DNA from: a virus | Reading direction: 5' to 3' (one strand) | Length of the DNA: 64,000 nucleotides | Virus record (IMG/VR): IMGVR_UViG_3300027759_000045 | Location: 124,001-188,000 of that record | Shown: positions 12,565-34,624 of the stretch, piece by piece | Layout: the number at the start of each line of letters is the position of its first letter | How positions within the stretch are numbered: the first letter of the stretch is position 1 | Made by a program: the position numbers and the translations under genes | Notes under the pieces: model-generated | Databases searched by the model: none | The model's input: only the letters and a program-made list of their open reading frames with translations | Told to the model about the DNA's origin: nothing

Positions 12565-13576
12565 TTCCTACACCAGTTGGCAACCCTTAGAAGAAGTTAT
12601 TGTAGGTCGTGCATACAGCCCAGACTACTTTGACTTCATTGAAGATCCGCAAGTGCGTAACCAATTACAACAGATCTTACACGAAACAGAAGAAGATTTA
12701 AATAACTTGCAAAAGACAATTGAAACTTATGGTGCTCGTGTACGTAGACCTAATTTGCCGCCCAAGGATCAATTTGTATGGTGGCAAACAGAAAACGGTG
12801 GTGCACCGCTGCCTCCACTGACTCCGCGTGATTGGCAAATCAGTCTAGGACAAAAGTTACTGCGTGTGTTGCCAATGGAAGAACTGGACGACATTTGTGC
12901 AGAATATGCAGACCAAGTGATCAGTCCACACAACGGTCGCTGGGATGCTGACTGCATTCTTAACCAAGCAAGTGCCAGTTGTATTGTACGTGTAGGGCGT
13001 GACGTATTCTTTGACAACAGTGATTATCTAAAGCCAGAACAAACTCGTTGGATTGTGGACAACTGCTTGGGCCCAGAGTATCGTATACACGAAGCAGTAA
13101 CAGACGGCCACGGCGATGCTGTGTTTGCTATTCTCAAGCCTGGTGTTATCTTGTCCAGCAAGCACGATGTTAACTTAGACTTAGCCAAGGACTTTCCAGG
13201 GTGGGAAGTGCTAAAGATTTGGGACTCAAGTATCTGGGCCGCAATGGAAATAGGCAAGTTCAAATACGAACAAAGTCCCGGAGCATGGTATGTGCAAGGG
13301 CAAACGCCCACACAGGAGTTTACCAAGTTTGTAGACACCTACTTGAACAAGTGGACCGGCTTTGTTGCTGAAACAGTATTTGATGTCAACTGTTTAGTGC
13401 TGGATGAAGAAAATGTTATCTTCAGTGCTTACAATAGAGATGTGTTTGATTTCTGTAAACAGCATCGTATTAATCCTATTATCAGTGAACTGCGTCACAG
13501 TTACTTCTGGGACGGTGGCATCAGTTGTTGTACACAGGATTTGACACGCCGAGGCGGTTTAGAAACATATCTATAA
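12557..13576 (+). CDS. amidinotransferase (glycine/inosamine amidinotransferase-like, pentein fold)
   Basis: The protein opens SYTSWQPLEEVIVGRA, the hallmark N-terminus of arginine:glycine and inosamine-phosphate amidinotransferases, which move the amidino group of arginine to an amine. Catalytic candidates are in place: an Asp in RWDAD (130 or 132), the H-x-D pair H185/D187 in GHGDAVFAILKPGVIL (compare HIDATF in animal glycine amidinotransferase) and the nucleophilic Cys in DGGISCCTQDL (C324, with C325 beside it). The 339-residue length fits. The acceptor is unknown; near an aminotransferase and sugar epimerase, an amino sugar or a modified peptide amine is plausible. It ends with TAATG shared with the next gene. 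Confidence 0.88.
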   Translation: MINSYTSWQPLEEVIVGRAYSPDYFDFIEDPQVRNQLQQILHETEEDLNNLQKTIETYGARVRRPNLPPKDQFVWWQTENGGAPLPPLTPRDWQISLGQKLLRVLPMEELDDICAEYADQVISPHNGRWDADCILNQASASCIVRVGRDVFFDNSDYLKPEQTRWIVDNCLGPEYRIHEAVTDGHGDAVFAILKPGVILSSKHDVNLDLAKDFPGWEVLKIWDSSIWAAMEIGKFKYEQSPGAWYVQGQTPTQEFTKFVDTYLNKWTGFVAETVFDVNCLVLDEENVIFSAYNRDVFDFCKQHRINPIISELRHSYFWDGGISCCTQDLTRRGGLETYL

Positions 13577-14607
13577 TGTTTGTCATTCCAATTGCTAACC
13601 AGCACTCGTACAATTCAATACCGCGTAATGCAGATTTAAAATTAACCATTGACAATCACTGCAATGCGCCCAGTCGCCAATTGGTTATAGACTGGAAAGG
13701 TGATTGTTTTGTATGTGGGTGCGAAGCATGGTTACCGATCAGTGTGGGACAAATTTCAGACTTTGATTCATTGGCCAGTGTATGGAATAGTAATACAGCG
13801 TTGGCATTACAAGCAGATATTGATTCCGGTGCATATACACATTGTGCTGTTGATCGGTGTGGTGTGGTACATGCCAGCAAGATAGACAAAACACACGTGG
13901 TCAGTATCAATGTTGACGAAAGTTGTAACCTACGTTGTCCCAGTTGCAGACCTGCGGCAATAATGATCAACTCAGGTCCCGAATATGATCAAAAACTAGC
14001 ACAGGTACAACACATACGCCGATTGTTAGAAGAGTTTGCAGAGCCCTGTCACATTGTGATGAGTGGCAACGGAGATCCATTGGCCAGTGCTATTATGCGT
14101 CCATTGATACGAGAGTTTCGGCCCGGCCACAATCAAACTATTCGGCTGTTCACCAATGGCCTATTGCTAAAAAAACAACTAGATGATTCTCCTATCCTTG
14201 ATCACATCACACAGTATTTTATCAGCATAGATGCAGGCTCTGCTGGTGTGTATGAACGTGTGAGATTAGGCGGGCAATGGTCTCAATTGATTGCTAACCT
14301 AACTTGGTTGCAAGACACTGCTAAACGTACAGGTGCAGAAGTACTGTTAAAGTTTGTGCTACAACAAGACAACTATCAAGACATGCAGAACTTCTGTCGA
14401 CTATGTGTTGATATGGGCTTTAGTGGTGTTATCAATCGACTAGAAGATTGGGGCACCTGGGCCGATTACGCTGTGCATGATGTGATTGGTAACGCCGAAC
14501 ATACAGATCATCTGGCGGCCATGTATTTCTTAACCAGTGCATACTCAGAGTATGCAGGGCGTATACAGTTTAATCCCAGTCTAGAAGAAATGTGTCATGC
14601 CCAATAG
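13576..14607 (+). CDS. radical SAM protein with N-terminal twitch/half-SPASM region
   Basis: The start is ATG 13576 in the TAATG overlap with the amidinotransferase (343 residues); an upstream in-frame ATG at 13525 is less likely. A cysteine-rich N-terminal region (HCNAP, CFVCGCEAW, then HCAVDRCG) resembles a half-SPASM auxiliary-cluster domain, with the familiar spacing element ASVWNS between. The radical SAM cluster motif follows as CNLRCPSC (about 115-122). The normal GGEP motif is altered to GNGDP in VMSGNGDPLAS. It is separated from the other seven radical SAM genes and lies on the opposite strand, next to the amidinotransferase, suggesting a shared substrate. Reaction unknown. Confidence 0.85.
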   Translation: MFVIPIANQHSYNSIPRNADLKLTIDNHCNAPSRQLVIDWKGDCFVCGCEAWLPISVGQISDFDSLASVWNSNTALALQADIDSGAYTHCAVDRCGVVHASKIDKTHVVSINVDESCNLRCPSCRPAAIMINSGPEYDQKLAQVQHIRRLLEEFAEPCHIVMSGNGDPLASAIMRPLIREFRPGHNQTIRLFTNGLLLKKQLDDSPILDHITQYFISIDAGSAGVYERVRLGGQWSQLIANLTWLQDTAKRTGAEVLLKFVLQQDNYQDMQNFCRLCVDMGFSGVINRLEDWGTWADYAVHDVIGNAEHTDHLAAMYFLTSAYSEYAGRIQFNPSLEEMCHAQ

Positions 14608-15385: not shown

Positions 15386-15407
15386 AAACTAAAAAAGACG
15401 TGGGCTA

Positions 15408-16673
15408 TTATAGGTGTGTCAGCCACGGAAACAACAGTTTCCAATCGGTGCCACGACGGCGATCTATTTCAGTTAGATAAACTTTCAAATCAGCAACACG
15501 TTCTGCGTTGCGCGGTCCTGCCACAATCTGTTTCATAATGCCACGCATGTGTTCTTTAGCACTGACTTCGCTGGGATTGCGTTCTCGCATTGCGGCCAAC
15601 AGACGCTCGAAGTCCTGTTCAAACACACCTGGTCCAAATATGTCTGGAACCATTTCAGGCGGTGTCATTACACTCATGAAACTGTAGCTAATAGGATTCC
15701 ACGGGTTTCGACGATCGTTCCATTCGTTTATCTTTTCTACTAGCTCAGGTGCTGTTTTAATTGTCAATGCCGACACTGCACTGTTCACGCACATCACAAC
15801 CCAGTCTTTATCCAGTAGATATTCCCAGTTTTCTGTCCACTCAGCCAAGTCTAGTCCCCACCGCACATACTCTTCTTGTGGTCCCCAGGCATCTATACTA
15901 CCTGTGATTTGCAATCGTTTTAGTGCGCCAGACTCAACCATCTTGCCAAATCGATCAATGTAGGCTCGGAACTTTTTAGGAGGTACCTTTAGGTTGGTAA
16001 TAATGTTGAATGTGAGTTCGGGATTGGGGTGACTCTCCCAGAAGTCCATGCTGATGTCAAATTCATCCTGGAAGAAAGGCTCGCCGCCTAGTATTTGATA
16101 GTAGCGTATGTGTTTGTAACGATCTTTCTCTTCAAGATAACGCCAAAAGTCTGCTAACATGCGCTCATAGTTGGGATTAGATTGTGTGTTATGCCCAAAG
16201 TTTACATTGCCTTGTGTAAACACACCAAATCGTCGGTTCTCTTCTTCCCATTTTGTACTAAAGTGACTGCCGCAATACAAGCAGGCCATGTTGCATACAT
16301 TGTTGAAATATACTTCTAATATGGTAGGTACAACTTCTAATGTAGCTGGATCTTCAAACAACTCGTGTGGAGTGCGATCTAGGTCATGACGAGCATGCAA
16401 TTGATATTGTCTATCGCTCATGCCGCCGGCTGTTTCAATTTTCTCACAGTATTGACAACCACCCTGTGGCCATTCGCCACGCAACATCATTTGCCTGGCT
16501 TCTATTTTGTTTGGCAGGTTATGAAAACTTTCAAAATTATCCGGAGGTATGGGTTGTTGGTCTGTGCGATGGCAACTGGCACTTGTGCCTTGATTTAAGT
16601 ACACAGTACTCCATGCCCACTTGAGCAAGCATCCTGTGTCTGTTTTGATTGGAAATACTTGTTTATCAGTCAT
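15408..16673 (-). CDS. twitch-domain radical SAM protein (421 aa)
   Basis: Last gene of the long minus-strand operon. The N-terminal twitch region has CLLKWAWSTVYLNQG, SASCHR and GGCQYC (residues about 15-80), the KW/SCH subtype also seen at 23087-24445 and 25549-26949. The radical SAM cluster motif is CNMACLYC (about 140-147), and ILGGEPFF gives the SAM-binding GGEP. The C-terminus, RRGTDWKLLFPWL, resembles the RRGxxFxxxFP ends of the other two of this subtype. Such proteins use SAM and Fe-S clusters to modify peptides or small metabolites; the substrate is unknown. Start overlaps the carbamoyltransferase stop (ATGA). Confidence 0.9.
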   Translation of the reverse strand: MTDKQVFPIKTDTGCLLKWAWSTVYLNQGTSASCHRTDQQPIPPDNFESFHNLPNKIEARQMMLRGEWPQGGCQYCEKIETAGGMSDRQYQLHARHDLDRTPHELFEDPATLEVVPTILEVYFNNVCNMACLYCGSHFSTKWEEENRRFGVFTQGNVNFGHNTQSNPNYERMLADFWRYLEEKDRYKHIRYYQILGGEPFFQDEFDISMDFWESHPNPELTFNIITNLKVPPKKFRAYIDRFGKMVESGALKRLQITGSIDAWGPQEEYVRWGLDLAEWTENWEYLLDKDWVVMCVNSAVSALTIKTAPELVEKINEWNDRRNPWNPISYSFMSVMTPPEMVPDIFGPGVFEQDFERLLAAMRERNPSEVSAKEHMRGIMKQIVAGPRNAERVADLKVYLTEIDRRRGTDWKLLFPWLTHL

Positions 16674-18181
16674 GAGCAGACTTTTACTCCGTATAATTGT
16701 TCAAATCTATCTGCGTCTGCACGATCATTTACCATGGGTTCACCACGTATGTTAAGACTTGTGTTAAGCAACATGGGACAACCTGTGTTCTTGTACCATT
16801 CTTCTAGCAGTTGTCTTATTCCGGAGCCATCCTTGGGAACAGTCTGTACCCTACTAGTGCCATCCCTATGAACGATAGCAGGAAATATGTGAGGATGCCT
16901 ACAGCGAGCGATGACTTGCATATACCTACTGTTATGGAAGCCATGAGGCATATCAAAATACATATCAACATGTTCCTCCAAAATGATTGGCGCAAATGGT
17001 CTGAATTGCTGTCGTCTTTTAATATCATTTACACGGTCCTTTATATCTGCACCACGCGGGTCTGCCAATAAACTACGATTGCCTAGAGCTCTAGGGCCAA
17101 ACTCTGCACGACCACTAGCAACACCCACAATTTTATCACGTAGCAAACAAGCCACAACGTCGTTGACAGGATAAGCACCAGGAATATCACTACCCAGATA
17201 GGCGTTGGTCCAATGTATCTGTTTTCCGTATGCCAGTGCTGCTGCCCCCAGGCTACTGCCAGCATCACCAGGACAAGGCATAATCCAAATGTTATCAAAG
17301 TATTCTCCTAGGTTGCGGTTAGCACTACAGTTGAGAGCAACACCGCCCATGTAGACCAAGTTGTTACTCCAGCCAAAGTCCCTGGCTCTACGCATTACTG
17401 AGTTGATCAGCTGTTCTGCTATGGCCTGTGCGCCAGCGGCAATATCAAACTCCGTTAAGCCTTCTAAGTACTGGTTGTCTATGCCGGTGTGCAGATTTTC
17501 ACGAAAGCGTATGGTGTCTACATCTTCTACCAATGCTTGCATTTTAACAGCGTGACCAGCATTGCCATATGCAGCCATGCCCATCAAGATATATTCTTCA
17601 TCTAATGGACGTAGGCCAACGCTGCCAGTAACTGCAGAGTAGAACAGTCCAATTGAATGTGGATAATGTTGTGTCCAAAGTTTTTTATACTTTGCCATGC
17701 CTTTTGAATCATATTCTGCTCCCCAGATAGTTACGGTGTCTAATTCGCCAATTGCATCAATTACAACCACTGTGGCCCTGTTATAGGGGCTGGATTGGAA
17801 TCCAGCGGCGGCGTGACTATGATGATGGGACATATATTTTCTAGGACATTGTAGTAGTCGCTGCCGATGAACAGTATCAGATAAGTGTTTACGCAGATAC
17901 TGATCCAAAGTAAAATTCCCAAAATTAAAGGCTTCCTCATATTGTCCCGAATATAGTTGTTGTAGTTTTTTGACCCACGGACGTTCATAGTATGCAATCA
18001 CATCCGGAGTTGCGTATGACATTGCTTCTGCAATGATTGAATCATTTAGATGTGCGTCGTTTTTGTTTTTGCTGTAGCGTTCTGCATGGCCAGCAAAAAG
18101 GACGCTGCCGTCAGACTGAATTACACTGACGGCAGCATCGTGAAATCCAGCACTGATACCAAAATATGTTTTCAACTTCAT
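16670..18181 (-). CDS. carbamoyltransferase (NodU/CmcH/TobZ family)
   Basis: O-carbamoyltransferase, which uses carbamoyl phosphate and ATP to carbamoylate a hydroxyl of a sugar or antibiotic. Seen: GISAGFHDAAV at 8-18 (opening of the N-terminal kinase-like domain), HHHSHAAAGF (about 118-127) with the metal-binding histidines, VYMGGVALNCSAN, and the C-terminal RAEFGPRALGNRSLLADP and FRPFAP runs. At 503 residues it is slightly shorter than many CmcH proteins but both domains are complete. It is coupled by ATGA overlaps to a 33-residue gene before it and a radical SAM gene after it. In capsule and antibiotic clusters these enzymes decorate glycans, the most likely role here. Confidence 0.93.
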   Translation of the reverse strand: MKLKTYFGISAGFHDAAVSVIQSDGSVLFAGHAERYSKNKNDAHLNDSIIAEAMSYATPDVIAYYERPWVKKLQQLYSGQYEEAFNFGNFTLDQYLRKHLSDTVHRQRLLQCPRKYMSHHHSHAAAGFQSSPYNRATVVVIDAIGELDTVTIWGAEYDSKGMAKYKKLWTQHYPHSIGLFYSAVTGSVGLRPLDEEYILMGMAAYGNAGHAVKMQALVEDVDTIRFRENLHTGIDNQYLEGLTEFDIAAGAQAIAEQLINSVMRRARDFGWSNNLVYMGGVALNCSANRNLGEYFDNIWIMPCPGDAGSSLGAAALAYGKQIHWTNAYLGSDIPGAYPVNDVVACLLRDKIVGVASGRAEFGPRALGNRSLLADPRGADIKDRVNDIKRRQQFRPFAPIILEEHVDMYFDMPHGFHNSRYMQVIARCRHPHIFPAIVHRDGTSRVQTVPKDGSGIRQLLEEWYKNTGCPMLLNTSLNIRGEPMVNDRADADRFEQLYGVKVCS

Positions 18182-18279: not shown

Positions 18280-18280
18280 A

Positions 18281-19330
18281 TCATGTCCTTTGTATTATTT
18301 TAATTTGTTGGTCTGCATAATCTGCATCTGTCCAGTTATAACTGTATGTAGCTGTTGCATTGCTGGTGCGTATTTTATACACATCAAGATGCGTTCCCAA
18401 CATGTTCCATATATCTACATAGTTATCTGTTCCAAAACTACGGATCAAATCTACCTGAGCCACCTGCGGATGTCCAATGGTCAATGTTTTATCGTCTGGA
18501 TCAAATCCATTGTTTATTAACCATGTTCTAAAGTCTGCCAAATGCTTCTTTTGCCAGTCATGTGGGCCAGGATTGTTTGCCCACTCTATATCAAAATCAC
18601 CAGCAGCTTCAAGTTGACTACGCATGGTTGTGGTTGTTAAAGTATCAATGATCATATTGGGATTATAGTTGGCCTCGTCCACAAATACTTCCCAATGGTG
18701 TTTGCCCACAGCCTTATTTACGCCTACAAAAACTCCACCCAGTGGCCTATTGATTGTTTCAATTCCAAACAGTTCATAATCTTGTTTATCTAATAGAAAT
18801 CGTGGTGCGTGTAACCAACACATGAGTTGACTAGGTCGTTGCCATGCAGGTGCATAAAGTGCTTTGCGCATACTGAGAACAAGACTTTCGTATTCATGAC
18901 ATAACAAATTTAATTGTCTTATATGCCATCGTGTAGTAGAATCTGCTTTGGTATAAAAAGGACTCATTGCACCCGATACACCTTGTAAATCTTCAAAGTA
19001 ACGATGTAGATAGTTTAACTTATCATGTATTAACGTTGTATCAGGCGTAATAGTATTAGCAGTTGAGAAATAATCGTCAATTTGATATCCAATGTTGGCA
19101 GCATTAATGGCAGCAATACTACTGTTCATTTGTTCAGTCAAGTATTCTGCGTTGCGCTGACTTTGTGTAAATCCAAAAAAACAGTAATTCTTTTCCAAAT
19201 GATAATTGTCACGGATCAGGGTATTTAATGCGGCAAGCCATTTGTGACTCAGGCTGTTGTCCGCCACATCTATATGCACAGTGAGCAGACTATCTTTTCC
19301 GCGCAGGTCTATTTCAATTTGATCTATCAT
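18281..19330 (-). CDS. unknown protein of radical SAM cluster (349 aa)
   Basis: The start is set at ATG 19330, overlapping the upstream stop (ATGA); an alternative at 19348 adds six residues. I recognise no catalytic family. The visible pattern is DNSLSHKWLAALNTLIRDNYHLEKNYCFFGF near the N-terminus, a helical middle, then WLHAPRFLLDKQDYELFGIETINRPLGGVFVGVN and a C-terminal DDKTLTIGHPQVAQVDL. Trp, His and Asp are frequent. Similar unannotated proteins occur beside twitch radical SAM genes in phage contigs as far as I remember. Its place between a radical SAM gene and a carbamoyltransferase suggests a cluster-specific enzyme or scaffold. Function unknown. Confidence 0.7.
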   Translation of the reverse strand: MIDQIEIDLRGKDSLLTVHIDVADNSLSHKWLAALNTLIRDNYHLEKNYCFFGFTQSQRNAEYLTEQMNSSIAAINAANIGYQIDDYFSTANTITPDTTLIHDKLNYLHRYFEDLQGVSGAMSPFYTKADSTTRWHIRQLNLLCHEYESLVLSMRKALYAPAWQRPSQLMCWLHAPRFLLDKQDYELFGIETINRPLGGVFVGVNKAVGKHHWEVFVDEANYNPNMIIDTLTTTTMRSQLEAAGDFDIEWANNPGPHDWQKKHLADFRTWLINNGFDPDDKTLTIGHPQVAQVDLIRSFGTDNYVDIWNMLGTHLDVYKIRTSNATATYSYNWTDADYADQQIKIIQRT

Positions 19331-20625
19331 TGTATATTCATCCACCATTTTAATACATCAGGCCGGCTGCTCAGTATGTCTGTCATTGTGACTTGTTGTG
19401 TACGTATCTGTTCTAATTTTAACACACGTGCCTTGCCTTTTGCAATACCTGCGGCATACTGATCCGGCCATTGTTCAGCAAACGTAGGGCGTGTGCGTAG
19501 TTGAATTAACATGTCTCGCATCACTTGTGTGCGACATTGCGGTAACATTTCGTCAATCCAATCATGTAGCAATTCACGCGGCAATGCTAACGGACTCATA
19601 ACAATGTCAGGACCGAAACTGAATATCACTTTGGCCAACAGTTCTACTCCATACGTTTGCGCTAACGTTTCCATTGCACCAATCTCAAACATGCCTGGAA
19701 GAGTCAGCGTAAAGTCCAACCGCATCTGTCTACGATTTTTTTGGTACTTTAACCCTTCTTCAAAGTTTTGACAGAACTGTGAATAATCAAGTCCTGTTCT
19801 GATGTATTCTCCGATGTGTCCGGTTCCGTCAAGGCTGGCACAAATCTGCCAGTCACGTATGTTGGTCAAAATGTCACGATATAAATTAACGCCACGATAC
19901 TCAATGCGACTAAGATTGGTGTTATATCTAGCATATAGCTTAGGTCCATCTCCAAGTTCTACAATTCTTTTCATATACCGCCAATGTTGTTCATACATTA
20001 AAGGTTCTCCGCCCACCCAATAAATCTCTTCTACACGGTGTTGTTCTACTGCTTCGGCAAATTCTGACTCAATTTGCTCATCTTGAAACTTGGTTATTTC
20101 TTGACGTATTTCTGTGCGCATCCAATTGTTCTTAGGATTGTGCCAGTTGGTCATGTCATGTGTCTTTTGCTCTGTTTCCCATGCACTACTTAACATGTCT
20201 CCGCAGGTTCTACATTTAAAGTTACACAGGTTTGAGAAACGGTAATCCCAACTAACTGGTTTCATCGTGGTATACCCTGTGCTGTCTGTAGTAGTAACTG
20301 CATCGTCATATTTGTGTTTGAATAAATGCCAAAAATAACTGCGGTAAACATCAGTGTTTAACAGTTTACTATTACACACGTCGCATTCTGGTAATGTTTC
20401 GCCTGCCATCATTCTACGTCGAACTGATCGCATGTGATCACTGTTCCAGTGTTGCTCTAGTGTAACAGGCGTGTACCGGCCAGAGCCTGCAGATGTGTCA
20501 ATATACTGCTCAAAACTCTGTGCAGGTTCTCTGGAAGCGCAACACATACGCCGTTCTGTTTGTGGACTTAGATACGTGTGTGTCCATGGCGCCATGCACA
20601 ATGTATCAGGCTTTGTTGTAGTCAT
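19327..20625 (-). CDS. twitch-domain radical SAM protein (432 aa)
   Basis: N-terminal twitch region of the PW/CC subtype: LCMAPWTHTYLSP (about 9-21), RRMCCAS, LEQHWNSDHMRSVRRRM and ECDVC. The radical SAM motif is CNFKCRTC followed by G and SSAWE; YWVGGEPLM carries the GGEP motif. The N-terminal position of the half-SPASM cysteines is the mirror of the usual order and marks the N-twitch family (NCBI calls these twitch domain-containing radical SAM proteins). Overlaps both neighbours (20 bases upstream, ATGA downstream). Three adjacent genes share this subtype, so they arose by tandem duplication and may act in sequence or on related substrates. Confidence 0.9.
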   Translation of the reverse strand: MTTTKPDTLCMAPWTHTYLSPQTERRMCCASREPAQSFEQYIDTSAGSGRYTPVTLEQHWNSDHMRSVRRRMMAGETLPECDVCNSKLLNTDVYRSYFWHLFKHKYDDAVTTTDSTGYTTMKPVSWDYRFSNLCNFKCRTCGDMLSSAWETEQKTHDMTNWHNPKNNWMRTEIRQEITKFQDEQIESEFAEAVEQHRVEEIYWVGGEPLMYEQHWRYMKRIVELGDGPKLYARYNTNLSRIEYRGVNLYRDILTNIRDWQICASLDGTGHIGEYIRTGLDYSQFCQNFEEGLKYQKNRRQMRLDFTLTLPGMFEIGAMETLAQTYGVELLAKVIFSFGPDIVMSPLALPRELLHDWIDEMLPQCRTQVMRDMLIQLRTRPTFAEQWPDQYAAGIAKGKARVLKLEQIRTQQVTMTDILSSRPDVLKWWMNIQ

Positions 20626-21826
20626 AATTGATCAATGCCGCAAACTCTGGTGCCACATCTGCTAAGTTTTGTTTTCGTTTGTAATCAAAGTCGCGCAGGT
20701 TCATTCGCAACAGATTTCCATCTAGGCTATTGCCACGATTCATAAACTCAGCCGCACTCACAAATTCTTTAAGTATCTTAGGCGGAACGCTTGCAGAGGT
20801 CAGTTGTTTAGTAATTTCTGCTTTGGCCGATTCTGGCAGTGTGCTGATACTAAAGTAATAGGCATCGTGCATCATGTTCCAGTAAATAAAATCAAATCCC
20901 TGTTGTACAAGCCAATTGGCCACTGTTTCGAGATAGTACACATTGAATACATTAATGGTGCAACAGGCCTGCAGAGTAATGTTGCTGTTGCGGCTGCGTA
21001 GTTGACGGAAACGTTCAACATTCTCCACAACTTCTGTCCACACAGCATTAGTGCGTTGATATTCAAAACGTTCAGCAACATCGTCGATGCTGACAGCAAT
21101 CTCTACATGTTTGAAATGTTTCCAGATTGCCTCACCTTCATCTGGATATTGTGTGCCATTGGTATTGTAATGTATTTCGACTTGTGCGGCACGTCCAGTA
21201 TCTACTAACTTTTGTAGCAGTTGGAAATGTTCTTTGATCATAAAAGGCTCGCCGCCAGTAAATTCAATGTAGCGTATGTTGTCCAGGTGCTGGTCTAGGT
21301 CTGTCCAGAACTCTGCGCTTTCTCTAGGCCAGGCACCGTCCTTCAGCATTTGATAAGCAAAGTTGCCACGAGTGTCTTCTGCACGATTATATTTAATTTC
21401 TTCCGCGGCGAACTGGCTACTGCTCCACGAACCACAAATGCGACATTTTAAGTTGCAGATGTTGCCCAGTTTAAGATCAAGGAACATCAATGGCATAGCA
21501 TCCGTGGTCCAGGAAACATCTGTGTCAATCATGTGCTTGAGTCTGTCTAGTGTATGCATACGTTTACTTGTGCGACCTGCACGTTCTTCGTTCCAGCAAC
21601 GCCGGCAGTTTTGCGGCTTTTTGCCAGCAAGAAAGTCTTCACGCAGAGTTTTCATTGCTTGACTATTTTGTATTTCAACTAATCCAGTAGAGGCCAGTTT
21701 ATATTTGTCACCAGCATCGTTGGTAATTTCATCCATGGCCAAACAGCATGGTCGCACAGTGCCAACAGGACTAGCCTCTAGACTGATCCAGGGTAACACG
21801 CAAAAAGTGTCATGTGGTATGTTCAT
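20606..21826 (-). CDS. twitch-domain radical SAM protein (406 aa)
   Basis: Second of three adjacent PW/CC-subtype proteins. FCVLPWISLEASPVG (8-22) and VRPCCLAM provide the first twitch cysteines; KPQNCRRCW the next pair. The radical SAM cluster motif CNLKCRIC is followed by G-SWSS, and FTGGEPFM holds the GGEP motif. IHYNTNGTQYPD matches the strand-4/5 region shared with the neighbouring paralogues (YNTNxT). Length and motif set are complete, so it is likely active. Start overlaps the upstream stop by four bases (ATGA). Substrate unknown; no precursor-peptide gene is obvious next to it. Confidence 0.9.
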   Translation of the reverse strand: MNIPHDTFCVLPWISLEASPVGTVRPCCLAMDEITNDAGDKYKLASTGLVEIQNSQAMKTLREDFLAGKKPQNCRRCWNEERAGRTSKRMHTLDRLKHMIDTDVSWTTDAMPLMFLDLKLGNICNLKCRICGSWSSSQFAAEEIKYNRAEDTRGNFAYQMLKDGAWPRESAEFWTDLDQHLDNIRYIEFTGGEPFMIKEHFQLLQKLVDTGRAAQVEIHYNTNGTQYPDEGEAIWKHFKHVEIAVSIDDVAERFEYQRTNAVWTEVVENVERFRQLRSRNSNITLQACCTINVFNVYYLETVANWLVQQGFDFIYWNMMHDAYYFSISTLPESAKAEITKQLTSASVPPKILKEFVSAAEFMNRGNSLDGNLLRMNLRDFDYKRKQNLADVAPEFAALINYDYNKA

Positions 21827-23106
21827 TTAATTGCTCTTAGTTCAGGTAATACATCAAGCACATGTTCTCGTCTAATGCTGTCAAGCTCGTGCGTCTTGCG
21901 CCAAAAAGTGTCTAGTAGATGTGTGTTGTCAGTGCTGTTCATAAATGTAATAGCACTTTCAAATCCCACAGTGGCACGATTTAATTGATCCAATGGGCGC
22001 AACCATTCTAAGTGTTGCTCATACTTAGATTGTATTTGTTGTTTGTACTCTGCAGGTGCGATGTCGATACGCAAGTATGCAGGGTCTTGAAGTATGTTCA
22101 CGTTGAGATCCTGAGGTTTTAATAAACCTTTTTCTACCCAGTCTCTGTGAAAGTCAGGAAGATGCAGTGCATTCATTATACTCAATGTAGGACTGATATA
22201 AAAGTCTACCCTAGGGCATATTTCCATCATCTGTCTACGATTAGATTCTACCACAGCCCAGTCTGTGCCTTTACGTATATACTCACCTCGTGGACCCGAC
22301 GCATCAAGGCTTGCACCAACTGCCACGCTGTCAAATTTGCGCCAGTAATCAAACACTGTGCGGTCTTTAAGACGTGTCTGTGTAAAGTTAGTATTGTATA
22401 TTAGTCTAACATCAAAGCGACCACGACGTTCTAGTTCTTCTAGAATCCGGTAGTGCTCTTCCATCATCAAGGGTTCGCCGCCGGCAAAGTAAATCTGCTC
22501 CACGTGATCAATATGCTCAATCAGCTGTTCCCACAGATCAGTGGCAAAACGACCAGCATAGTTAAGAGGTTTGTTTTGACTGGCCCAAGCGGATCCTGCT
22601 AATTCTGTTTGATCTTTGTACCAACTTGAACTAAAGATATGCCCACAACTACGGCAACTTAAATTGCAAAGATTACTAAACCGCAGATCCCAATAGGTCA
22701 TTTCAAATTGATCAACATGCCCAGCAGCATCTGTATTGTCTACACGGGCAACATGGTGCCCGTGGTGCTTGTTGGCACTTTTACGTCCACTGAAAAATCC
22801 TGATTCTTCCTGTTCGTAGCAACGGCCACAGGTAGGATTAGGTGTTTCGGCCAGCATGTCAACTCTGAGTTGTTTTTGTTCGGCACTGTTCCATATTTCT
22901 GCCAGTGTGTTTGATCTGCAGTTGCCAATTTGGCCCACACCCATTTCGGCATGACAGCAAGGATATGCTTCGCCTGTGGGATATGCGTGTAAGTGTATCC
23001 AAGGGTAGATGCAAAATGTTTTGGAATCTTTTAATAAAAATTCTTCACGTTCTGAAAGTTCTGTTGGACGTACTAAATCTGTTGAATTATATTTGTATTG
23101 AGTCAT
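21823..23106 (-). CDS. twitch-domain radical SAM protein (427 aa)
   Basis: Third of the adjacent PW/CC-subtype proteins, with the most canonical N-terminus: FCIYPWIHLHAYPTG (31-45), AYPCCHAEMG, a GxxGNCRSNTLAEIWNS element and CGRCYEQEE. CNLSCRSCG is the radical SAM cluster motif, and FAGGEPLM the GGEP motif; IYNTNFTQTRL follows. The WDLRFSNLCNLSC run is typical of the family. It overlaps the previous gene by 20 bases and the next by four. Alternative functions such as a heme-modifying or tRNA-modifying radical SAM are not supported by the twitch arrangement. Confidence 0.92.
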   Translation of the reverse strand: MTQYKYNSTDLVRPTELSEREEFLLKDSKTFCIYPWIHLHAYPTGEAYPCCHAEMGVGQIGNCRSNTLAEIWNSAEQKQLRVDMLAETPNPTCGRCYEQEESGFFSGRKSANKHHGHHVARVDNTDAAGHVDQFEMTYWDLRFSNLCNLSCRSCGHIFSSSWYKDQTELAGSAWASQNKPLNYAGRFATDLWEQLIEHIDHVEQIYFAGGEPLMMEEHYRILEELERRGRFDVRLIYNTNFTQTRLKDRTVFDYWRKFDSVAVGASLDASGPRGEYIRKGTDWAVVESNRRQMMEICPRVDFYISPTLSIMNALHLPDFHRDWVEKGLLKPQDLNVNILQDPAYLRIDIAPAEYKQQIQSKYEQHLEWLRPLDQLNRATVGFESAITFMNSTDNTHLLDTFWRKTHELDSIRREHVLDVLPELRAIK

Positions 23107-24445
23107 ACCATGTTGATAATGTTACGTCTAACGAATAACTGTCTTTAAATGTATCTTTAAAACTTTTTCCGCGACGTTGATCGTACTGTGTGTAAAACTG
23201 CTTAAAATCATTGTGTAACTTAGGCATATCAAATGCGTCTGAATGCGGAGTTTTTACTACATCTAAATAATCAATTAATCTCTGTAGGTGATTAATCTCG
23301 TGTTCGTGCAGTATGTCAGGAACCGCTTTCCATCGCTGTAGGAAATTAGATAAGTCAAGCATGTGACGTGTAAGCAATGCCCGGGGCAATACCAGTGGAC
23401 TTTGAAAACTGGGAAATCTCAATATATTTAATGTAAAGTTAACACGTTCACGACCATACTTTGATTTAAGTTGTACTACGTAATGCAGAAGCATTGGCAA
23501 CGTTGTCAAGCACAATGCATTAATGGTGGCCATTATGTGTACTGCACCCACATGACTGTCTAGTAATTTAACTACATTTTTTTCCCAAGCAGGATAATCT
23601 AGTCCATCTCGAATATATTCAGCGGCAGCGCCAACAGCTTCCATGGATGTGTAAATTTCCACATCCAATCCTTGAGTGCTTTCAATTAATCTATCCACGT
23701 CAACATCTGCACCAAGATTAGAATTAATTGCTAACCGGGTGGTCGATCTACCGGGATTGTTTTTAAACCAGTCAATCAATTTCCATGTCTCGGCACTCAT
23801 TAGCGGTTCGCCGCCGGTGATTCTCAGTTCTTGGAGTGTTTGGTGAAGGTCAGTTTCCCACCATTTAAAAAACGCTTCAACATAGGGATTAGTTTCACCA
23901 AGCCGGTATAGTTGACTGCTAGCGTGAGCATGAGTAAAGTGGTTACGCCCATCAGACACCAGGCCGACATAAGGTCCGCTTCGCTTGATATCATTGACCC
24001 ATGTGCTACTGAAAGCAGGGTTACAATAGCTACAAGCAAATTGGCAAGTGCGATCGAACGCAATTTCAAGTGTGCGAAGATTGACATCTTCGGTGTGTGG
24101 GGTGTTATATGCTTCATCTAAGGCCTTTATAGGATAAATTTTACTTTTGTACACACGGTCTGATACGGAATCTTTGCCCATGTCTTCGATCTTCCAACAG
24201 TATTCACAACCTGAGGGACGTTTCCCTTCCAACATCAGTCGTCGATCATCTTTTTTCTTTGCAGTGTTATGCAATGCAGATGGATTAATTTTTAATTGTT
24301 CAACATCGATTGCGTGTGCTGGAGGGTGATGACAGCTGGTGGTCTGGCCCGAACCTAGCCATATGGTGGCATTGTACCATTTGGCCGCACAAAAACTTGC
24401 ACTCTTGGTGTCTAAAATTTCATGTTTAAAGTCTAAATCGTTCAT
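23087..24445 (-). CDS. twitch-domain radical SAM protein (452 aa)
   Basis: The start is set at ATG 24445 (MNDLDFKHEIL), 20 bases inside the end of the upstream gene; a frame from 24544 would add 33 residues that lie wholly in that gene. KW/SCH subtype: SFCAAKWYNATIWLGSGQ, TSCHHPP, LHNTAKKKDDRRLMLEG, then GCEYCW. The radical SAM motif is CQFACSYC and ITGGEPLM gives GGEP. The C-terminus QRRGKSFKDTFKD parallels the paralogue at 25549-26949 (RRGTDFLTAFPE). The two are separated by one glycosyltransferase-like gene, which suggests a duplicated cassette. Confidence 0.9.
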   Translation of the reverse strand: MNDLDFKHEILDTKSASFCAAKWYNATIWLGSGQTTSCHHPPAHAIDVEQLKINPSALHNTAKKKDDRRLMLEGKRPSGCEYCWKIEDMGKDSVSDRVYKSKIYPIKALDEAYNTPHTEDVNLRTLEIAFDRTCQFACSYCNPAFSSTWVNDIKRSGPYVGLVSDGRNHFTHAHASSQLYRLGETNPYVEAFFKWWETDLHQTLQELRITGGEPLMSAETWKLIDWFKNNPGRSTTRLAINSNLGADVDVDRLIESTQGLDVEIYTSMEAVGAAAEYIRDGLDYPAWEKNVVKLLDSHVGAVHIMATINALCLTTLPMLLHYVVQLKSKYGRERVNFTLNILRFPSFQSPLVLPRALLTRHMLDLSNFLQRWKAVPDILHEHEINHLQRLIDYLDVVKTPHSDAFDMPKLHNDFKQFYTQYDQRRGKSFKDTFKDSYSLDVTLSTWYDSIQI

Positions 24446-25565
24446 TGATAAATTGTTGGAAACGGTTGGGAAATTCTTTGCGAGTCTGTGTGCGCACTTC
24501 TGCAAGATGTTGTTGATTGTATTTACACACATTATAGCATTCATTTAGGAAACTTGCAAGATCTTGTTGGCACAAATCATTAACTATCATTGTTATTCTT
24601 TCCATTCGATCTTGATGATTATCAATAGAATCAAAACTTTCATCAATCACATGTCCAAATGTTTGAAATCCCAACTTGTGTATATCTCGATAAAATCCTA
24701 CACTGGTAGCACAGATCCACGGATGCCCCATGGCCAATGGTTTGGCAATTTTTTCTGTTCTAAAACTATACGGATATTCAAACACAGTTTCAGTTACTAA
24801 ACTAAAGTAGGTGTCAATATACGGAGCAGGTTCTAAATAAATTTCTCCCCATTTGCTGCCAAACAGTTCGTTCTTGGCAAATTTGTGTGGGTAGTCGATC
24901 ACAATACTATTATTTTTAAAAAATTCAAATTCATATTCTGAAGGCAAGTGTTTAATAGATGCAGTTTTTCCCAATAGATCTTGCCTGTTTTCTATTAGTG
25001 TAAAATGCCTGCTGCCACCGGCACGACCATCTAACAGTGTCCAAAGTGCATGATCCAACAGATTCATTTGTCGAAATCTTTCAAGTAGATATTTTCTATG
25101 TGATCTTGCTCGCCCATTTAGAAATAAAAATTTGTAGGGTTTGTTGTGTTTGGCAAAGATTTCATCAGTACGTTGTTGTGCCTGAATGTTTTCATCATAG
25201 TCCAAGATGTGTGTAATAAAATGTTCGTGCAATAGATATGGATATTGAGATTCCATCTCGCCTCCAGTTAGCAACAATAGTTGACCTGACAGTACCAGGT
25301 CCTCAATCTTTAACACATGCAATTGATCCAGTATAGTTTTAGAACCTTCGGCGCTGTTGCCAAATATCACAGTTATGGTTGGATCCTGTGTCATTGATCT
25401 GACACGATCTGTGTGTTCTACCATTTGCTTACGGCCTAATAGATAGATTGAATTGGACTGCGTTTCGTGCAGGCCCAAATCCCAGAATTCATCATCCGAG
25501 TAAGGTTTCATTATACTGTAAACCTCGCTCATTGTGTCAATAATAAACTTACGATTGCCGAGCAT
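24426..25565 (-). CDS. glycosyltransferase-like protein, TEK-motif family (379 aa)
   Basis: A 379-residue protein whose C-terminal half matches the TEK group: FRTEKIAKPLAMGHPWICATSVGFYRDIHKLGFQTF (TEK at 270-272), then DESFDSIDNHQDRMERI. KFLFLNGRARSHRKYLLE (about 145-162) before it is a conserved-looking GT-B type element: N-G-R-x-R-x-H-R. The combination suits a fucosyltransferase-like enzyme with a basic donor-binding site. It lies between two KW/SCH radical SAM genes and overlaps both. A later in-frame ATG at 25532 is possible but would leave a gap in an otherwise overlapping operon. Donor and acceptor unknown. Confidence 0.65.
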   Translation of the reverse strand: MLGNRKFIIDTMSEVYSIMKPYSDDEFWDLGLHETQSNSIYLLGRKQMVEHTDRVRSMTQDPTITVIFGNSAEGSKTILDQLHVLKIEDLVLSGQLLLLTGGEMESQYPYLLHEHFITHILDYDENIQAQQRTDEIFAKHNKPYKFLFLNGRARSHRKYLLERFRQMNLLDHALWTLLDGRAGGSRHFTLIENRQDLLGKTASIKHLPSEYEFEFFKNNSIVIDYPHKFAKNELFGSKWGEIYLEPAPYIDTYFSLVTETVFEYPYSFRTEKIAKPLAMGHPWICATSVGFYRDIHKLGFQTFGHVIDESFDSIDNHQDRMERITMIVNDLCQQDLASFLNECYNVCKYNQQHLAEVRTQTRKEFPNRFQQFINERFRL

Positions 25566-26949
25566 GGTACTCGCATTCTGCCCACCAAGACCGCATTTCA
25601 GGAAAAGCTGTTAAAAAGTCAGTTCCTCTACGCCGATCATGTTCAGCAAAGAAACGATGGAAATCTGCTCGGGCAGTTGAATTATCTTTATGTTGTCCTT
25701 CACGCATCCACGCAACATCACGTTCTAGGCGTTGCACTTCGTAATCTTTAAATCCGTGCAGAGGGTTAGCTTCTGTAACCATGTTGGCCAACATGTAATC
25801 TCTAGCACGTTCTAACTGTTGTGCATAACTTTCTGGAAGTATTTGTAAACTTTGCCAAGCAGGTTCACGTAGTACTGGAGTATCAAACCACACACGTTGA
25901 TAAGTTGTTGAATATGTTTTTCTTAATTCCAAAATCCATTTTAACAGTGCAGGCAAACCAGTGACAGTTAAATTGTTCATAGTAATAATAAACGTCAGAC
26001 TATTGCGATAAGGAATATCACGTAAGAATTCTTCAACATTATTGGCCATGCGACCATAGTCCAGTCCGTGACGTAAGTATTCTGCTTGTGCAGGTATACC
26101 AGAGTCTAGGCTGACGTACTGCATGAAGTGTTCAATGTTGGGCGTACAAAGACGTTTTACATAACTTATGTACTTTTTAAACAGCGCATCTTCCACTGAA
26201 AAGTTTGACGTTACATTCAGGTGTAGTTTAGGATTAGGGTGTTCTAATACATAATCAAACACCCGATAAGTGTTTCGATCCATTAATGGTTCACCACCAG
26301 TCATACGAAAGTGCTCTAGCTGTGGATACAGGGTGGGCCACCATTCCCAAAATGCATCTACATAAGGGTTAGCTTCCCTGACAGGAATAGGTTTGCGATT
26401 GCCTACAAAATGCTCCGGCGCATTGTGTGGTTTACTGGTGGGATATGCACCGTGTCGTTCTACTTCTTCACCCCAACTACTACTGAACTGCGGTGAACAA
26501 TAACTGCACTTTAGATTACAAGCGTGGTTAAAATTAACTTCTACATAACTGGGAACAACGTCATCCTCATTGCCTACACTGTTTTTAATCTTTTCAAAAT
26601 CCACCGCAGCCCAGGCTTCTCCAGAACGATAGTGGCGATCACTCAGTTTGTCCAAGTTTTCCATATTCCAGCAATACTGACACTCCGTGGGCTTTTCACC
26701 GCGAATCATCATCATACGTTGTTGTTTTTTGTGTTCAGTGTTGTGTATTCCACCAGTGTGTTGCAAATCATCTGCAGTGATCTGATGCAACGGCGGGTGG
26801 TAACAACTGTTGTTGAGTCCTGTAGGCAGGTGCAGACTTACCTGTTTCCACTTGGCCAAGCATAATGCAGGACCAAGATCCTCTGCCATCTGTTCAGCAG
26901 AGTTTAAGAATCGACTTTTGTTGTCTACTGTTTCATCACCTTTGTTCAT
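25549..26949 (-). CDS. twitch-domain radical SAM protein (466 aa)
   Basis: The longest radical SAM protein here, KW/SCH subtype: ALCLAKWKQVSLHLPTGL (about 28-45), NNSCYHPP, a GGIHNTEHKKQQRMMMIRGE element, then ECQYCW. CNLKCSYCS with the following PQFSSSWGEEVERHG is the radical SAM cluster region and RMTGGEPLM the GGEP motif. The end, RRGTDFLTAFPEMRSWW, matches its paralogues. It follows an SGNH-hydrolase-like gene with a 14-base overlap. All cluster ligands are intact, so the enzyme is probably active; substrate unknown. Confidence 0.92.
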   Translation of the reverse strand: MNKGDETVDNKSRFLNSAEQMAEDLGPALCLAKWKQVSLHLPTGLNNSCYHPPLHQITADDLQHTGGIHNTEHKKQQRMMMIRGEKPTECQYCWNMENLDKLSDRHYRSGEAWAAVDFEKIKNSVGNEDDVVPSYVEVNFNHACNLKCSYCSPQFSSSWGEEVERHGAYPTSKPHNAPEHFVGNRKPIPVREANPYVDAFWEWWPTLYPQLEHFRMTGGEPLMDRNTYRVFDYVLEHPNPKLHLNVTSNFSVEDALFKKYISYVKRLCTPNIEHFMQYVSLDSGIPAQAEYLRHGLDYGRMANNVEEFLRDIPYRNSLTFIITMNNLTVTGLPALLKWILELRKTYSTTYQRVWFDTPVLREPAWQSLQILPESYAQQLERARDYMLANMVTEANPLHGFKDYEVQRLERDVAWMREGQHKDNSTARADFHRFFAEHDRRRGTDFLTAFPEMRSWWAECEYHARQS

Positions 26950-27634
26950 GTAACCATTTCTTCACTGTTGGTTGCAGAAATTCTGCAAATTCTTTGTTAG
27001 CTTGCGGAGTAGGATGTTCATGGCAAAAATATCCGTGTTCTTCCCACCAACACCATTCTTTGATCTGTTCGTCCCAGGCAAAGGTTGCGGCTCGGCCCGG
27101 TACAATTCCATTGCTGTGCATACGCCAGCCCACGTCTGACGCACCCCAGCCATGCTGGAACCATTTGCTATCTAGCTGTGTGGCAATCCACTTTTGCCAG
27201 CTTGCACACAGTACATCAAATCCAAATGCCTGTGCTAGTAACGGATCAACGTCACTGAGCCCGCCAATAAAGGTAATGGGATTGTTCACACGATCACGTA
27301 TCTCACTCATTATAGCATGATTCAGTGCTGTACGTATACTGAACATGTCTTCTTTTTCAATCCATTCATGCGGCGGGGCATTCTTTATGCGCCCATAATC
27401 ACGTCCGGGTTCGGTCCATATCCATACTACAGGAACGTTGTCGGGCACACGCATGGCAACCAGTCTATCCAAACAGGCTAGATTACCCTGCCCCGGAGCC
27501 AAACAGTGCTGATAAGGCCAAGGCCAGTGATCTGCCAGTCGTTCATCGCCGGGCAATGGCTGTTGATTACCTTTGTCATAATTGTCATTAGTAAAGCCTT
27601 TTAGTGCCCAACTGTCCCCGGCAAAGATATACAT
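26936..27634 (-). CDS. SGNH/GDSL-hydrolase-like protein (232 aa)
   Basis: A 232-residue protein with the N-terminal FAGDSWA (4-10), which places a Ser after Gly-Asp as in SGNH/GDSL esterases, a later IGGLSDVD (block III-like), and a C-terminal HEHPTPQANKEFA that supplies the likely catalytic His (x-HPTPxAN, as DxxHPxxxG in the family). Such enzymes remove or transfer acyl groups on sugars or lipids; here O-deacetylation of a glycan is plausible. No signal peptide, so it acts inside the cell. It overlaps the upstream radical SAM stop by one base (TAATG) and the downstream radical SAM start by 14. Confidence 0.75.
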   Translation of the reverse strand: MYIFAGDSWALKGFTNDNYDKGNQQPLPGDERLADHWPWPYQHCLAPGQGNLACLDRLVAMRVPDNVPVVWIWTEPGRDYGRIKNAPPHEWIEKEDMFSIRTALNHAIMSEIRDRVNNPITFIGGLSDVDPLLAQAFGFDVLCASWQKWIATQLDSKWFQHGWGASDVGWRMHSNGIVPGRAATFAWDEQIKEWCWWEEHGYFCHEHPTPQANKEFAEFLQPTVKKWLHEQR

Positions 27635-28497
27635 TACTTTAGATCCTTTTTCTGTTGTGCAAAGATTTGATCACCATTGTACTGTTCTGGACAAAACTTA
27701 CACTGATCAATGGGCTGGTCTAGACTGTTCACAAACTGCTGTTTAGCTGTGCCACTGTCAGTGATCTTCAAGGGTCTGTAACTCAGCATGAGTTCACGGT
27801 CCTCTGCGCTGAGTGTGAGTGAGTGCTGTTGATCAAATTCGGGCAACACTGCCGCAACACCGCACTTGTACAGCTCACCACGTATGAAATGGTGGCAGGT
27901 TTTCATGTGGCAAATGTCATGTGCTCGAGCTACGTCACTTTGGTGCAGTGTTAGTGCGCCGTCTGTTTTGACAATGGCACCTTGGTGGAACCACCAATTG
28001 TATTCTATTTTGATGCGTACCCCACGTGCATCAGTAATGGTCATGTACTGTTGATAGGGGTTGTCTGTGTTAAACGTCACAGTGTGCGGGGCTTGACCAA
28101 AGTCTCGAACCTTTTGTATGATTTCTGATTTGTGCTGTTTGTTGTGTATGCCAACCCACAGCTCAATGTTGCGATGTTGCTCTAGTATGGGATAAAGATC
28201 GGCATGTCGATCCAATCTAAAGCCATTGCTGATAATTCTTATTTTCTTTCCAGGCCATAGTTGATTTATGCCCTGCACCCAGGCCAAGAACGTGGGGTTC
28301 AGTAGCGGCTCGCCGCCCAGGATGCCAATACTGCCAATATCAACTTGTTCGGCCCACTGCTGATATACTTCAGCATAGTCACTCCAGCGTTGATAGCCCG
28401 TGAAGTTGTAGTCATTGAAACGATTGCAACCTGCGCATGCTAGATTGCAAACATTAATGATATAAAACTCTGCGTAGGGTATGTGTAGCTTAGGCAT
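27634..28497 (-). CDS. radical SAM protein without twitch region (287 aa)
   Basis: A shorter radical SAM protein that opens almost directly with the domain: FYIINVCNLACAGCNRF (cluster motif CNLACAGC at about 17-24) and SIGILGGEPLL for GGEP. RIISNGFRL fits strand 4. The C-terminal third has extra cysteines (ICHMKTCHHFIRGELYKCG, then QCKFC), which may hold an auxiliary cluster in the usual C-terminal position. It therefore differs in layout from the six N-twitch proteins in the operon and is probably an independent lineage. Reaction unknown. Confidence 0.88.
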   Translation of the reverse strand: MPKLHIPYAEFYIINVCNLACAGCNRFNDYNFTGYQRWSDYAEVYQQWAEQVDIGSIGILGGEPLLNPTFLAWVQGINQLWPGKKIRIISNGFRLDRHADLYPILEQHRNIELWVGIHNKQHKSEIIQKVRDFGQAPHTVTFNTDNPYQQYMTITDARGVRIKIEYNWWFHQGAIVKTDGALTLHQSDVARAHDICHMKTCHHFIRGELYKCGVAAVLPEFDQQHSLTLSAEDRELMLSYRPLKITDSGTAKQQFVNSLDQPIDQCKFCPEQYNGDQIFAQQKKDLK

Positions 28498-33549: not shown

Positions 33550-33578
33550 ATTATACAGGAAGTGTAGATAAAAGTAAA
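33550..33578 (-). promoter_or_regulatory. sigma70-like promoter, TTTACT-17-TATAAT, ahead of the 20-gene operon
   Basis: On the minus strand a perfect -10 box TATAAT (33550-33555) is preceded at exactly 17 bases by TTTACT (33573-33578; four of six matches to TTGACA). The ATG at 33542 is only seven bases after the -10 box, so a transcript from here would be leaderless or start internally. The -35 lies in the arm of the terminator hairpin. TATAAT could also serve as a weak late-type element. Confidence 0.45.
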
Positions 33579-34612: not shown

Positions 34613-34624
34613 GTTGTTATCCTA

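What the first reader, a model, noticed from the sequence alone, without database searches (positions are those of the whole stretch)
13576..28497. Eight radical SAM genes in about 15 kb of a phage genome
Eight proteins have an intact CxxxCxxC cluster motif: six with an N-terminal twitch (half-SPASM) region in the minus operon, one cousin on the plus strand and one core-only form. The six split into two subtypes by their N-terminal cysteine wording: FCxxPW...CC (19327, 20606, 21823) and C-x-x-KW...SCH (15408, 23087, 25549). Tandem duplication and retention of all cluster ligands suggest successive reactions on one substrate. Phages often carry one or two such enzymes; eight with glycan enzymes suggests an undescribed tailoring pathway.
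Basis: partly seen in the sequence, partly recalled or inferred. Interest (0 to 1): 0.85.

Follow-up and report, generated by a model that had tools for sequence, protein, structure and literature searches.

The report
Phage module of five radical enzymes
A lineage of very large, mostly uncultured water phages carries, right after its tail genes, a fixed set of five different radical SAM enzymes (with up to 16 more elsewhere in the genome) plus, in many of them, iron-sulphur supply genes, which points to an undescribed multi-step chemical decoration pathway, most likely of a sugar-type molecule.

Summary
All eight genes are present with intact CxxxCxxC motifs; six are N-terminal-twitch radical SAM proteins (NF033640, 224-403 bits, cut-off 170). 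Two details are wrong: the 'core-only' enzyme has a conserved C-terminal four-cysteine set, and 25549 reads SCYH, not SCH. Eight is an undercount: the complete 346,856-bp genome has 21 (16 N-twitch).

Five of the six (19327, 20606, 21823, 23087, 25549) form a module kept in the same order and strand in relatives. Each is its own clade; all seven ligand cysteines are invariant in 84-115 distinct sequences per gene; dN/dS is 0.04-0.10. They are ancient, non-interchangeable enzymes. The number is normal for this uncultured clade (7-21 per genome) but rare elsewhere: three of 50,697 catalogued phage records match.

The module follows the tail-fibre genes behind a conserved hairpin and promoter-like box, with glycosyltransferase-like genes, a NodU/TobZ-type carbamoyltransferase and an AGAT/StrB-type amidinotransferase. 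The phage also encodes IscU, IscA and a ferredoxin.

Most likely these enzymes tailor a phage-made sugar or cyclitol decoration in several radical steps; modification of a tail protein is the main rival. A 12-radical-SAM marine phage with iron-sulphur genes was reported in 2017: new variant of a known kind.

The parts
25549..26949 (-). core N-twitch radical SAM enzyme 1 (SCYH subtype), 466 aa
   Evidence: NF033640 302 bits; 7 ligand Cys invariant in 115 distinct sequences; own clade
24426..25565 (-). glycosyltransferase-like protein of unknown family, 379 aa; one of about seven paralogues in the genome
   Evidence: conserved in 135 of 160 loci; paralogues; no Pfam or PDB sequence match: function inferred only
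23087..24544 (-). core N-twitch radical SAM enzyme 2 (SCH subtype), 485 aa
   Evidence: NF033640 291 bits; invariant ligands in 110 sequences
21823..23106 (-). core N-twitch radical SAM enzyme 3 (CC subtype), 427 aa
   Evidence: NF033640 403 bits; invariant ligands in 84 sequences; its profile aligns all four twitch Cys with BtrN; model pLDDT 83 with radical SAM matches in PDB
20606..21826 (-). core N-twitch radical SAM enzyme 4 (CC subtype), 406 aa
   Evidence: NF033640 351 bits; invariant ligands in 95 sequences
19327..20625 (-). core N-twitch radical SAM enzyme 5 (CC subtype), 432 aa
   Evidence: NF033640 283 bits; invariant ligands in 85 sequences
18281..19348 (-). conserved partner protein, 355 aa, fold without PDB match, phage-only family
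   Evidence: about 115 of 160 loci; AlphaFold pLDDT 85.5; no PDB match, 10 viral fold matches with E below 0.001
16670..18181 (-). carbamoyltransferase of the NodU/TobZ type, 503 aa
   Evidence: PF16861 1.6e-48 and PF02543 3.7e-31; PHROG Nol-like carbamoyltransferase; 89 of 160 loci
15408..16673 (-). accessory N-twitch radical SAM enzyme (SCH subtype), 421 aa
   Evidence: NF033640 224 bits; only 6 orthologues at 50% identity or more in the loci
27634..28497 (-). accessory radical SAM enzyme with C-terminal four-cysteine (twitch-like) set, 287 aa
   Evidence: PF04055 5.1e-9; C196, C212, C266, C269 shared with two paralogues
13576..14607 (+). accessory radical SAM enzyme with N-terminal SPASM match
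   Evidence: PF04055 and PF13186 over cut-off
12557..13576 (+). amidinotransferase (AGAT/StrB/SxtG-like), 339 aa
   Evidence: profile of its family hits PDB AGAT 1.4e-27, SxtG 1e-21, StrB 3.9e-19
28490..29449 (-). glycosyltransferase-like paralogue of 24426 (accessory)
   Evidence: phmmer within genome; 63 loci
10278..12564 (+). two glycosyltransferase-like paralogues of 24426 (10278-11393, 11377-12564)
   Evidence: phmmer within genome
30134..31060 (-). conserved glycosyltransferase-2-like protein, 308 aa
   Evidence: 156 loci, median 75% identity; Glyco_tranf_2_3 at 0.0024 in 4 of 17 members
31047..31442 (-). small conserved protein, 131 aa, unknown
   Evidence: 146 loci; no Pfam match
31686..33240 (-). 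two related conserved proteins (31686-32459, 32443-33240) with GT-A-like acidic motifs; assignment weak
   Evidence: related to each other; no Pfam match; 147-150 loci
33237..33542 (-). first gene of the transcription unit, 101 aa, unknown
   Evidence: conserved in 126 loci
33550..33595 (-). terminator-like hairpin (33595-33576) followed by TTTACT-17-TATAAT promoter-like box (33578-33550)
   Evidence: hairpin in 70 of 80 distinct homologous spacers; TATAAT in 36 of 80 against 4.6 in shuffles
33617..59589 (-). upstream tail block: fibre-like genes, 4855-aa tail protein, baseplate wedge (51297-54731), gp25-like, gp5-like
   Evidence: PHROGs; tail gene upstream on the same strand in 86 of 86 informative loci

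Best explanation
A clade-specific biosynthetic module fixed directly behind the tail genes of a jumbo-myovirus lineage. Shown: five ancient, non-interchangeable N-twitch radical SAM enzymes, each kept as a single orthologue with all cluster ligands, in fixed order, with glycosyltransferase-like genes, a carbamoyltransferase and an amidinotransferase; and phage-encoded IscU, IscA and ferredoxin elsewhere in the same genome. Inferred: (1) each enzyme uses a core [4Fe-4S] cluster to make a 5'-deoxyadenosyl radical and an auxiliary, fully cysteine-ligated cluster of the BtrN type to take or give an electron; (2) together they carry out successive oxidation, deoxygenation or epimerisation steps on one sugar or cyclitol assembled by the neighbouring transferases and decorated with carbamoyl and amidino groups; (3) IscU, IscA and ferredoxin supply clusters and electrons for some 20 radical enzymes; (4) the product is a glycan-like decoration placed on the virion tail or on the host envelope. 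A separate promoter-like box leans slightly towards expression apart from the late tail genes, hence towards the host envelope, but this is weak.
For: One-to-one orthologues and fixed order; invariant ligands; dN/dS 0.036-0.095; six separate clades. Twitch profile aligns all four Cys with BtrN, an aminocyclitol dehydrogenase. Carbamoyltransferase, AGAT/StrB/SxtG-like amidinotransferase, GT2-like match, NAD-dependent epimerase at window 5454-6422. IscU 6.6e-55 and present in 9 of 16 records; IscA 1.2e-18 and ferredoxin with DUF3470 3.5e-18. In two relatives IscU also lies next to a radical SAM gene (G008, G009).
Against: Substrate unknown; most glycosyltransferase assignments rest on weak matches or motifs. 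The BtrN match is weak by itself (whole E 6.8e-5) and its twitch stretch alone is not significant (i-Evalue 0.062). Position behind tail genes also fits protein modification, and cultured relatives Atu_ph07 and Phosso have peptide-maturase-like radical SAM genes in the same place. Carbamoyltransferase and amidinotransferase were not found in all loci (89 and 51 of 160, some of them cut short).
Confidence: 0.5

Rival explanations
1. Protein modification: the enzymes install radical modifications on a tail or fibre protein encoded just upstream, with the 355-aa partner (18281) or small proteins (31047, 33237) helping or serving as substrate.
For: Tail gene upstream in 86 of 86 loci. The cultured relatives Atu_ph07 and Phosso carry four C-terminal-SPASM-like radical SAM genes behind the giant tail gene, flanking a protein that ends in CHSSCHASCHNSRSRR, and one of those enzymes resembles DynA/DarE/PapB peptide maturases.
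Against: The CH tail is absent from all 15 clade genomes tested; the Atu_ph07 enzymes are not N-twitch (none over cut-off). No Cys-rich C-terminal tail on the fibre proteins. Core genes lie with transferases, not with a short precursor peptide.
Confidence: 0.25
2. DNA hypermodification: transferases, carbamoyltransferase and radical SAM enzymes elaborate a modified base of the phage genome.
For: Phage glycosyltransferases can modify DNA; carbamoyltransferase next to transferases would fit (established knowledge of phage base modification).
Against: No thymidylate-synthase-type enzyme in the genome with a working control; no TET/JBP match, though that control was silent. Module lies with tail genes, not replication genes.
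Confidence: 0.08
3. Small-molecule or nucleotide product inside the cell (viperin-like or cofactor chemistry), used to steer the host or block rival phages.
For: Viperin and MoaA appear among weak profile matches.
Against: Whole-length match is to NF033640; viperin models score far below their own cut-off; no nucleotide genes in the module.
Confidence: 0.07
4. Gene-family expansion without pathway meaning: the copies are redundant morons amplified by duplication.
For: Ten further, less conserved N-twitch genes are scattered over the genome with long branches.
Against: Five core genes kept one per locus with invariant ligands, fixed order and low dN/dS.
Confidence: 0.04

Closest known systems
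NF033640 N_Twi_rSAM (twitch domain-containing radical SAM protein, NCBIfam)
   Same: Sixteen proteins of this genome score above the curated cut-off over the full length; same N-twitch plus core architecture.
   Different: I know of no reaction assigned to the family; five fixed members in one operon is not part of its name or model; two scans of 84,980 bacterial and archaeal genomes with core members found no close relative.
Marine T4-like virus TARA_ERS488813_N000010 with 12 radical SAM genes and an A-type Fe-S carrier (Nishimura et al. 2017, PMC5332604)
   Same: Many radical SAM genes together with Fe-S assembly genes in one large phage.
   Different: 183 kb marine genome; no conserved syntenic five-enzyme module, glycan genes or orthology described in the passages read.
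Host recognition cluster of pelagimyophages (PMC7029224)
   Same: Variable island near tail genes with glycosyltransferases and radical SAM cassettes.
   Different: There radical SAM genes are described as variable cassettes; here five are fixed in order across the clade.
BtrN (butirosin aminocyclitol dehydrogenase)
   Same: All four auxiliary-cluster cysteines align at nearly the same spacing.
   Different: Twitch is C-terminal in BtrN, N-terminal here; core match weak; substrate residues not tested.
Vibrio phages K566 and K567
   Same: Six NF033640 matches in K566 (two over the cut-off), several adjacent; K567 has the same tblastn matches.
   Different: No orthologues of the five core enzymes: they branch apart; 22-25% identity.

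Membership tests
Radical SAM superfamily | CxxxCxxC core motif | tested here: met
   all eight proteins; invariant in 84-115 orthologues of each core gene
Radical SAM superfamily | reductive SAM cleavage with a [4Fe-4S] cluster | not testable with these tools
   needs purified protein
NF033640 N_Twi_rSAM | full-length profile score of at least 170 bits | tested here: met
   six genes in the window, 224-403 bits; sixteen in the genome
NF033640 N_Twi_rSAM | same, for 13576-14607 and 27634-28497 | tested here: not met
   35 bits and 19.7 bits
Twitch auxiliary cluster domain | four cysteine ligands C-x17/18-C-x~42-C-x2-C | tested here: met
   sequence level only: invariant in orthologues, aligned with BtrN; cluster itself not shown
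BtrN family | core domain followed by C-terminal twitch | tested here: not met
   twitch precedes the core
Peptide-maturase SPASM families (DarE, DynA, PapB) | equivalog score with C-terminal SPASM | tested here: not met
   no match near cut-off for the six
NodU/TobZ carbamoyltransferases (16670-18181) | both Pfam halves above cut-off | tested here: met
   PF02543 and PF16861
AGAT/StrB amidinotransferases (12557-13576) | profile match to solved members with invariant His, Asp and C-terminal Cys | tested here: met
   E 1.4e-27 to AGAT; H185, D187, C324 invariant; activity not shown
Phages with many radical SAM genes plus Fe-S assembly genes (2017 report) | ten or more radical SAM genes and an A-type carrier or IscU | tested here: met
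   21 radical SAM matches, IscU, IscA
Pelagimyophage host recognition cluster | location between VrlC and neck gp14 | tested here: inconclusive
   module follows giant tail protein and fibres; VrlC and gp14 homology not tested

The most novel reading that the evidence does not exclude
The five core enzymes act in sequence on one phage-made molecule, giving a sugar or cyclitol with a structure not known from cells, and the phage runs its own iron-sulphur and electron supply for it: a viral biosynthetic pathway built on radical chemistry and found only in viruses.
Probability: 0.3. Interest if true: 0.85.

Novelty: new variant of a known kind. Interest (0 to 1): 0.62.

Why it matters
Radical SAM enzymes are oxygen-sensitive and costly in iron and reducing power, so a phage that fixes five different ones in one operon, carries up to 21 in all and brings its own IscU, IscA and ferredoxin must gain a product that matters to it. 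Relatives of the core enzymes occur in hundreds of uncultured phage contigs, so the product may be common in nature. It offers a defined set of five orthologous enzyme families with no assigned reaction, and it makes the question of what phages do with radical SAM genes directly testable.

Tried and rejected
Recent tandem duplication: rejected (19-33% identity, separate clades). Decaying copies: rejected. One-off oddity of this genome: rejected. Core-only form for 27634: rejected. Contaminating bacterial DNA or a misjoined contig: disfavoured, since the record has a 134-bp direct terminal repeat, tail genes beside the module, and the same order recurs in many independent assemblies. CH-tail peptide as substrate in this clade: not found in 15 genomes. 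Bacterial close relatives: none by two scans of genome contigs, which use exact 7-8-residue peptides and would miss distant ones. T4-type late promoter (TATAAATA): one match in the window, below the chance mean, though it lies just upstream of a fibre gene. Foldseek with the 21823 model gave general radical SAM folds (CteB, BlsE, SkfB, viperin, anSME) with TM-scores of about 0.3-0.5, too broad to name a reaction.
Full report
What is there. The window is bases 124001-188000 of a 346,856-bp IMG/VR virus record whose ends share an exact 134-bp repeat, so the genome is probably complete. All eight radical SAM ORFs of the finding exist with intact CxxxCxxC. Six pass the NF033640 N-twitch cut-off. 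The plus-strand gene 13576-14607 has a radical SAM core and an N-terminal SPASM match. The gene at 27634-28497 was called core-only, but it shares four further cysteines (196, 212, 266, 269) with its two paralogues in the genome, in a spacing like a C-terminal twitch. Across the genome there are 21 matches to NF033640, 16 of them above the cut-off, and 19 to PF04055.

The fixed unit is five enzymes. Relatives were sought in IMG/VR with 21823 and 25549 as queries; 202 and 570 stretches encoded a relative, of which the best 80 each were kept. In those 160 loci, 19327, 20606, 21823, 23087 and 25549 have orthologues at 50% identity or more in 121-160 loci, practically one per locus (21823 reached two in at least one locus), in the same order and on the same strand in the loci printed. 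Fourteen long relatives (192-364 kb) each show the five in a block, judged by position and score, and 7-19 NF033640 matches in all. Selection caveat: the loci were found through 21823 or 25549, so presence of those two is by construction, but presence and order of the other three are not; and keeping the best 80 favours close relatives. Some contigs gave a locus in both scans, so the 160 loci are fewer than 160 genomes.

The copies are old and not interchangeable. The six window paralogues are 19-33% identical to 21823. In 84-115 distinct sequences per core gene all three core cysteines and all four twitch cysteines are invariant. Each core enzyme also has one more invariant cysteine (two in 25549) at a place of its own, which may be catalytic; this is inference. 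Median dN/dS against orthologues is 0.036-0.095.

How unusual it is. tblastn with 21823 or 20606 against 50,697 phage records found three records: Vibrio phages K566 and K567 and a 7,955-bp marine single-cell virus contig. By the baseplate wedge protein, the nearest catalogued phages are the Rak2/CBB-like jumbo myoviruses and Atu_ph07/Phosso (34-35% identity). Ten records picked from that search have no NF033640 protein over the cut-off and 0-4 PF04055 matches. In CBB no radical SAM gene is annotated in the 20 kb either side of the wedge gene. So the trait is ordinary within its clade and rare outside it.

Setting. The module lies at the 3' side of the tail block: baseplate wedge (PHROG match 8.9e-276), gp25-like and gp5-like proteins, a 4855-aa tail protein and fibre-like proteins. 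In 86 of 86 loci with enough upstream sequence a tail gene of this block lies upstream on the same strand. Between the last fibre gene and the module is a terminator-like hairpin and a TTTACT-17-TATAAT box. Homologous spacers keep a stable hairpin in 70 of 80 cases and TATAAT in 36 of 80 against 4.6 expected from shuffles. The module is therefore probably its own transcription unit. The phage uses strong sigma-70-like boxes before many other genes. This weakens the simple argument that the enzymes are made late with the tail.

Neighbours. 16670-18181 is a carbamoyltransferase with both Pfam halves. 12557-13576 belongs to the amidinotransferases by profile (AGAT 1.4e-27, SxtG, HsvA, StrB). 30134 has a weak GT2 match in 4 of 17 family members. 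24426, 28490, 10278 and 11377 are members of one family with at least three more copies in the genome, without Pfam match; I call them glycosyltransferase-like only by motif and company. 18281 is a 355-aa protein conserved in about 115 of 160 loci; its model (pLDDT 85.5) has no PDB match and ten phage-only matches in BFVD.

Iron-sulphur supply. The genome encodes IscU (PF01592, 6.6e-55), an IscA-type carrier (PF01521, 1.2e-18) and a ferredoxin with DUF3470 (3.5e-18). IscU and IscA are adjacent and flanked by radical SAM genes 289908 and 292947 of the genome. IscU occurs in 9 of 16 records tested. Fe-S genes together with many radical SAM genes in phages were reported in 2017 for a 183-kb marine virus with 12 radical SAM genes (PMC5332604), so the combination as such is not new.

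Mechanism. The twitch part of the 21823-led profile aligns its four cysteines with those of BtrN, an enzyme that oxidises an aminocyclitol (established knowledge). Together with carbamoyl and amidino transfer and sugar-type genes, the simplest reading is successive radical steps on a sugar or cyclitol. Shown: the enzymes, their conservation, their order, their company. Inferred: cluster content, reaction type, a common substrate, and the place of the product. Protein modification of the tail is the strongest rival, because cultured relatives have peptide-maturase-like radical SAM genes at the same place, but those are of another family and their apparent target tail is absent from this clade. 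DNA modification is less likely: no thymidylate-synthase-type gene; the TET search is uninformative because its control was silent.

Verdict. Observation confirmed with corrections; interpretation partly supported. New variant of a known kind: an N-twitch radical SAM family already named, and a phage type already noted for many such genes, but with a fixed five-enzyme module that I found described nowhere in the library searched.

Noticed in passing
L218:13119-14009 (Atu_ph07 gp170); L219:10415-11335 (Phosso); L220-L299: Phage proteins that end exactly in CHx[ST]CHx[ST]CHx[ST]RxRR. At least 120 IMG/VR stretches match (scan stopped at its limit); in the 80 loci kept, 99 of 99 such ORFs end at the motif (the search pattern had a T after it, which favours a stop), and 59 of 79 loci hold a radical SAM homologue of the Atu_ph07 enzymes, 46 of them within 200 bp and 58 on the same strand. 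No Pfam or NCBIfam name for the tail proteins tried; one flanking enzyme resembles DynA/PapB/DarE peptide maturases. Looks like a widespread RiPP-like modification of a phage protein. Atu_ph07 gp170 sits at the edge of a virion-protein cluster (CDS 170-215) found by mass spectrometry (PMC6102473).
   Followed up: partly
G000:C1:291406-292102 and 84080-84412: Phage-encoded IscU, IscA and ferredoxin in the same genome as 21 radical SAM genes.
   Followed up: partly
G000:C1:36108-37085: TctC-type substrate-binding protein (PF03401, 4.7e-19), a family abundant in Burkholderiales by general knowledge; a possible hint at the host.
   Followed up: no
window 7448-10279: 943-aa minus-strand protein with six WxPDPxxPPYIYVFGNQW-like repeats, unique in the genome and without Pfam or PHROG match; function unknown.
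   Followed up: partly
window 18281-19348: Invariant residues H115, E119, C150, H151, E152 and C56 in a phage-only fold suggest a metal site.
   Followed up: no
G000:C1:325975-326892: Second amidinotransferase-like gene by motif (GGGFHCVTLDTRR); no Pfam match.
   Followed up: no
G000:C1:93001-93876: QueE-like gene in which the third cysteine of CxxxCxxC is missing (CNFKCAGF); weak PF04055 match only.
   Followed up: no
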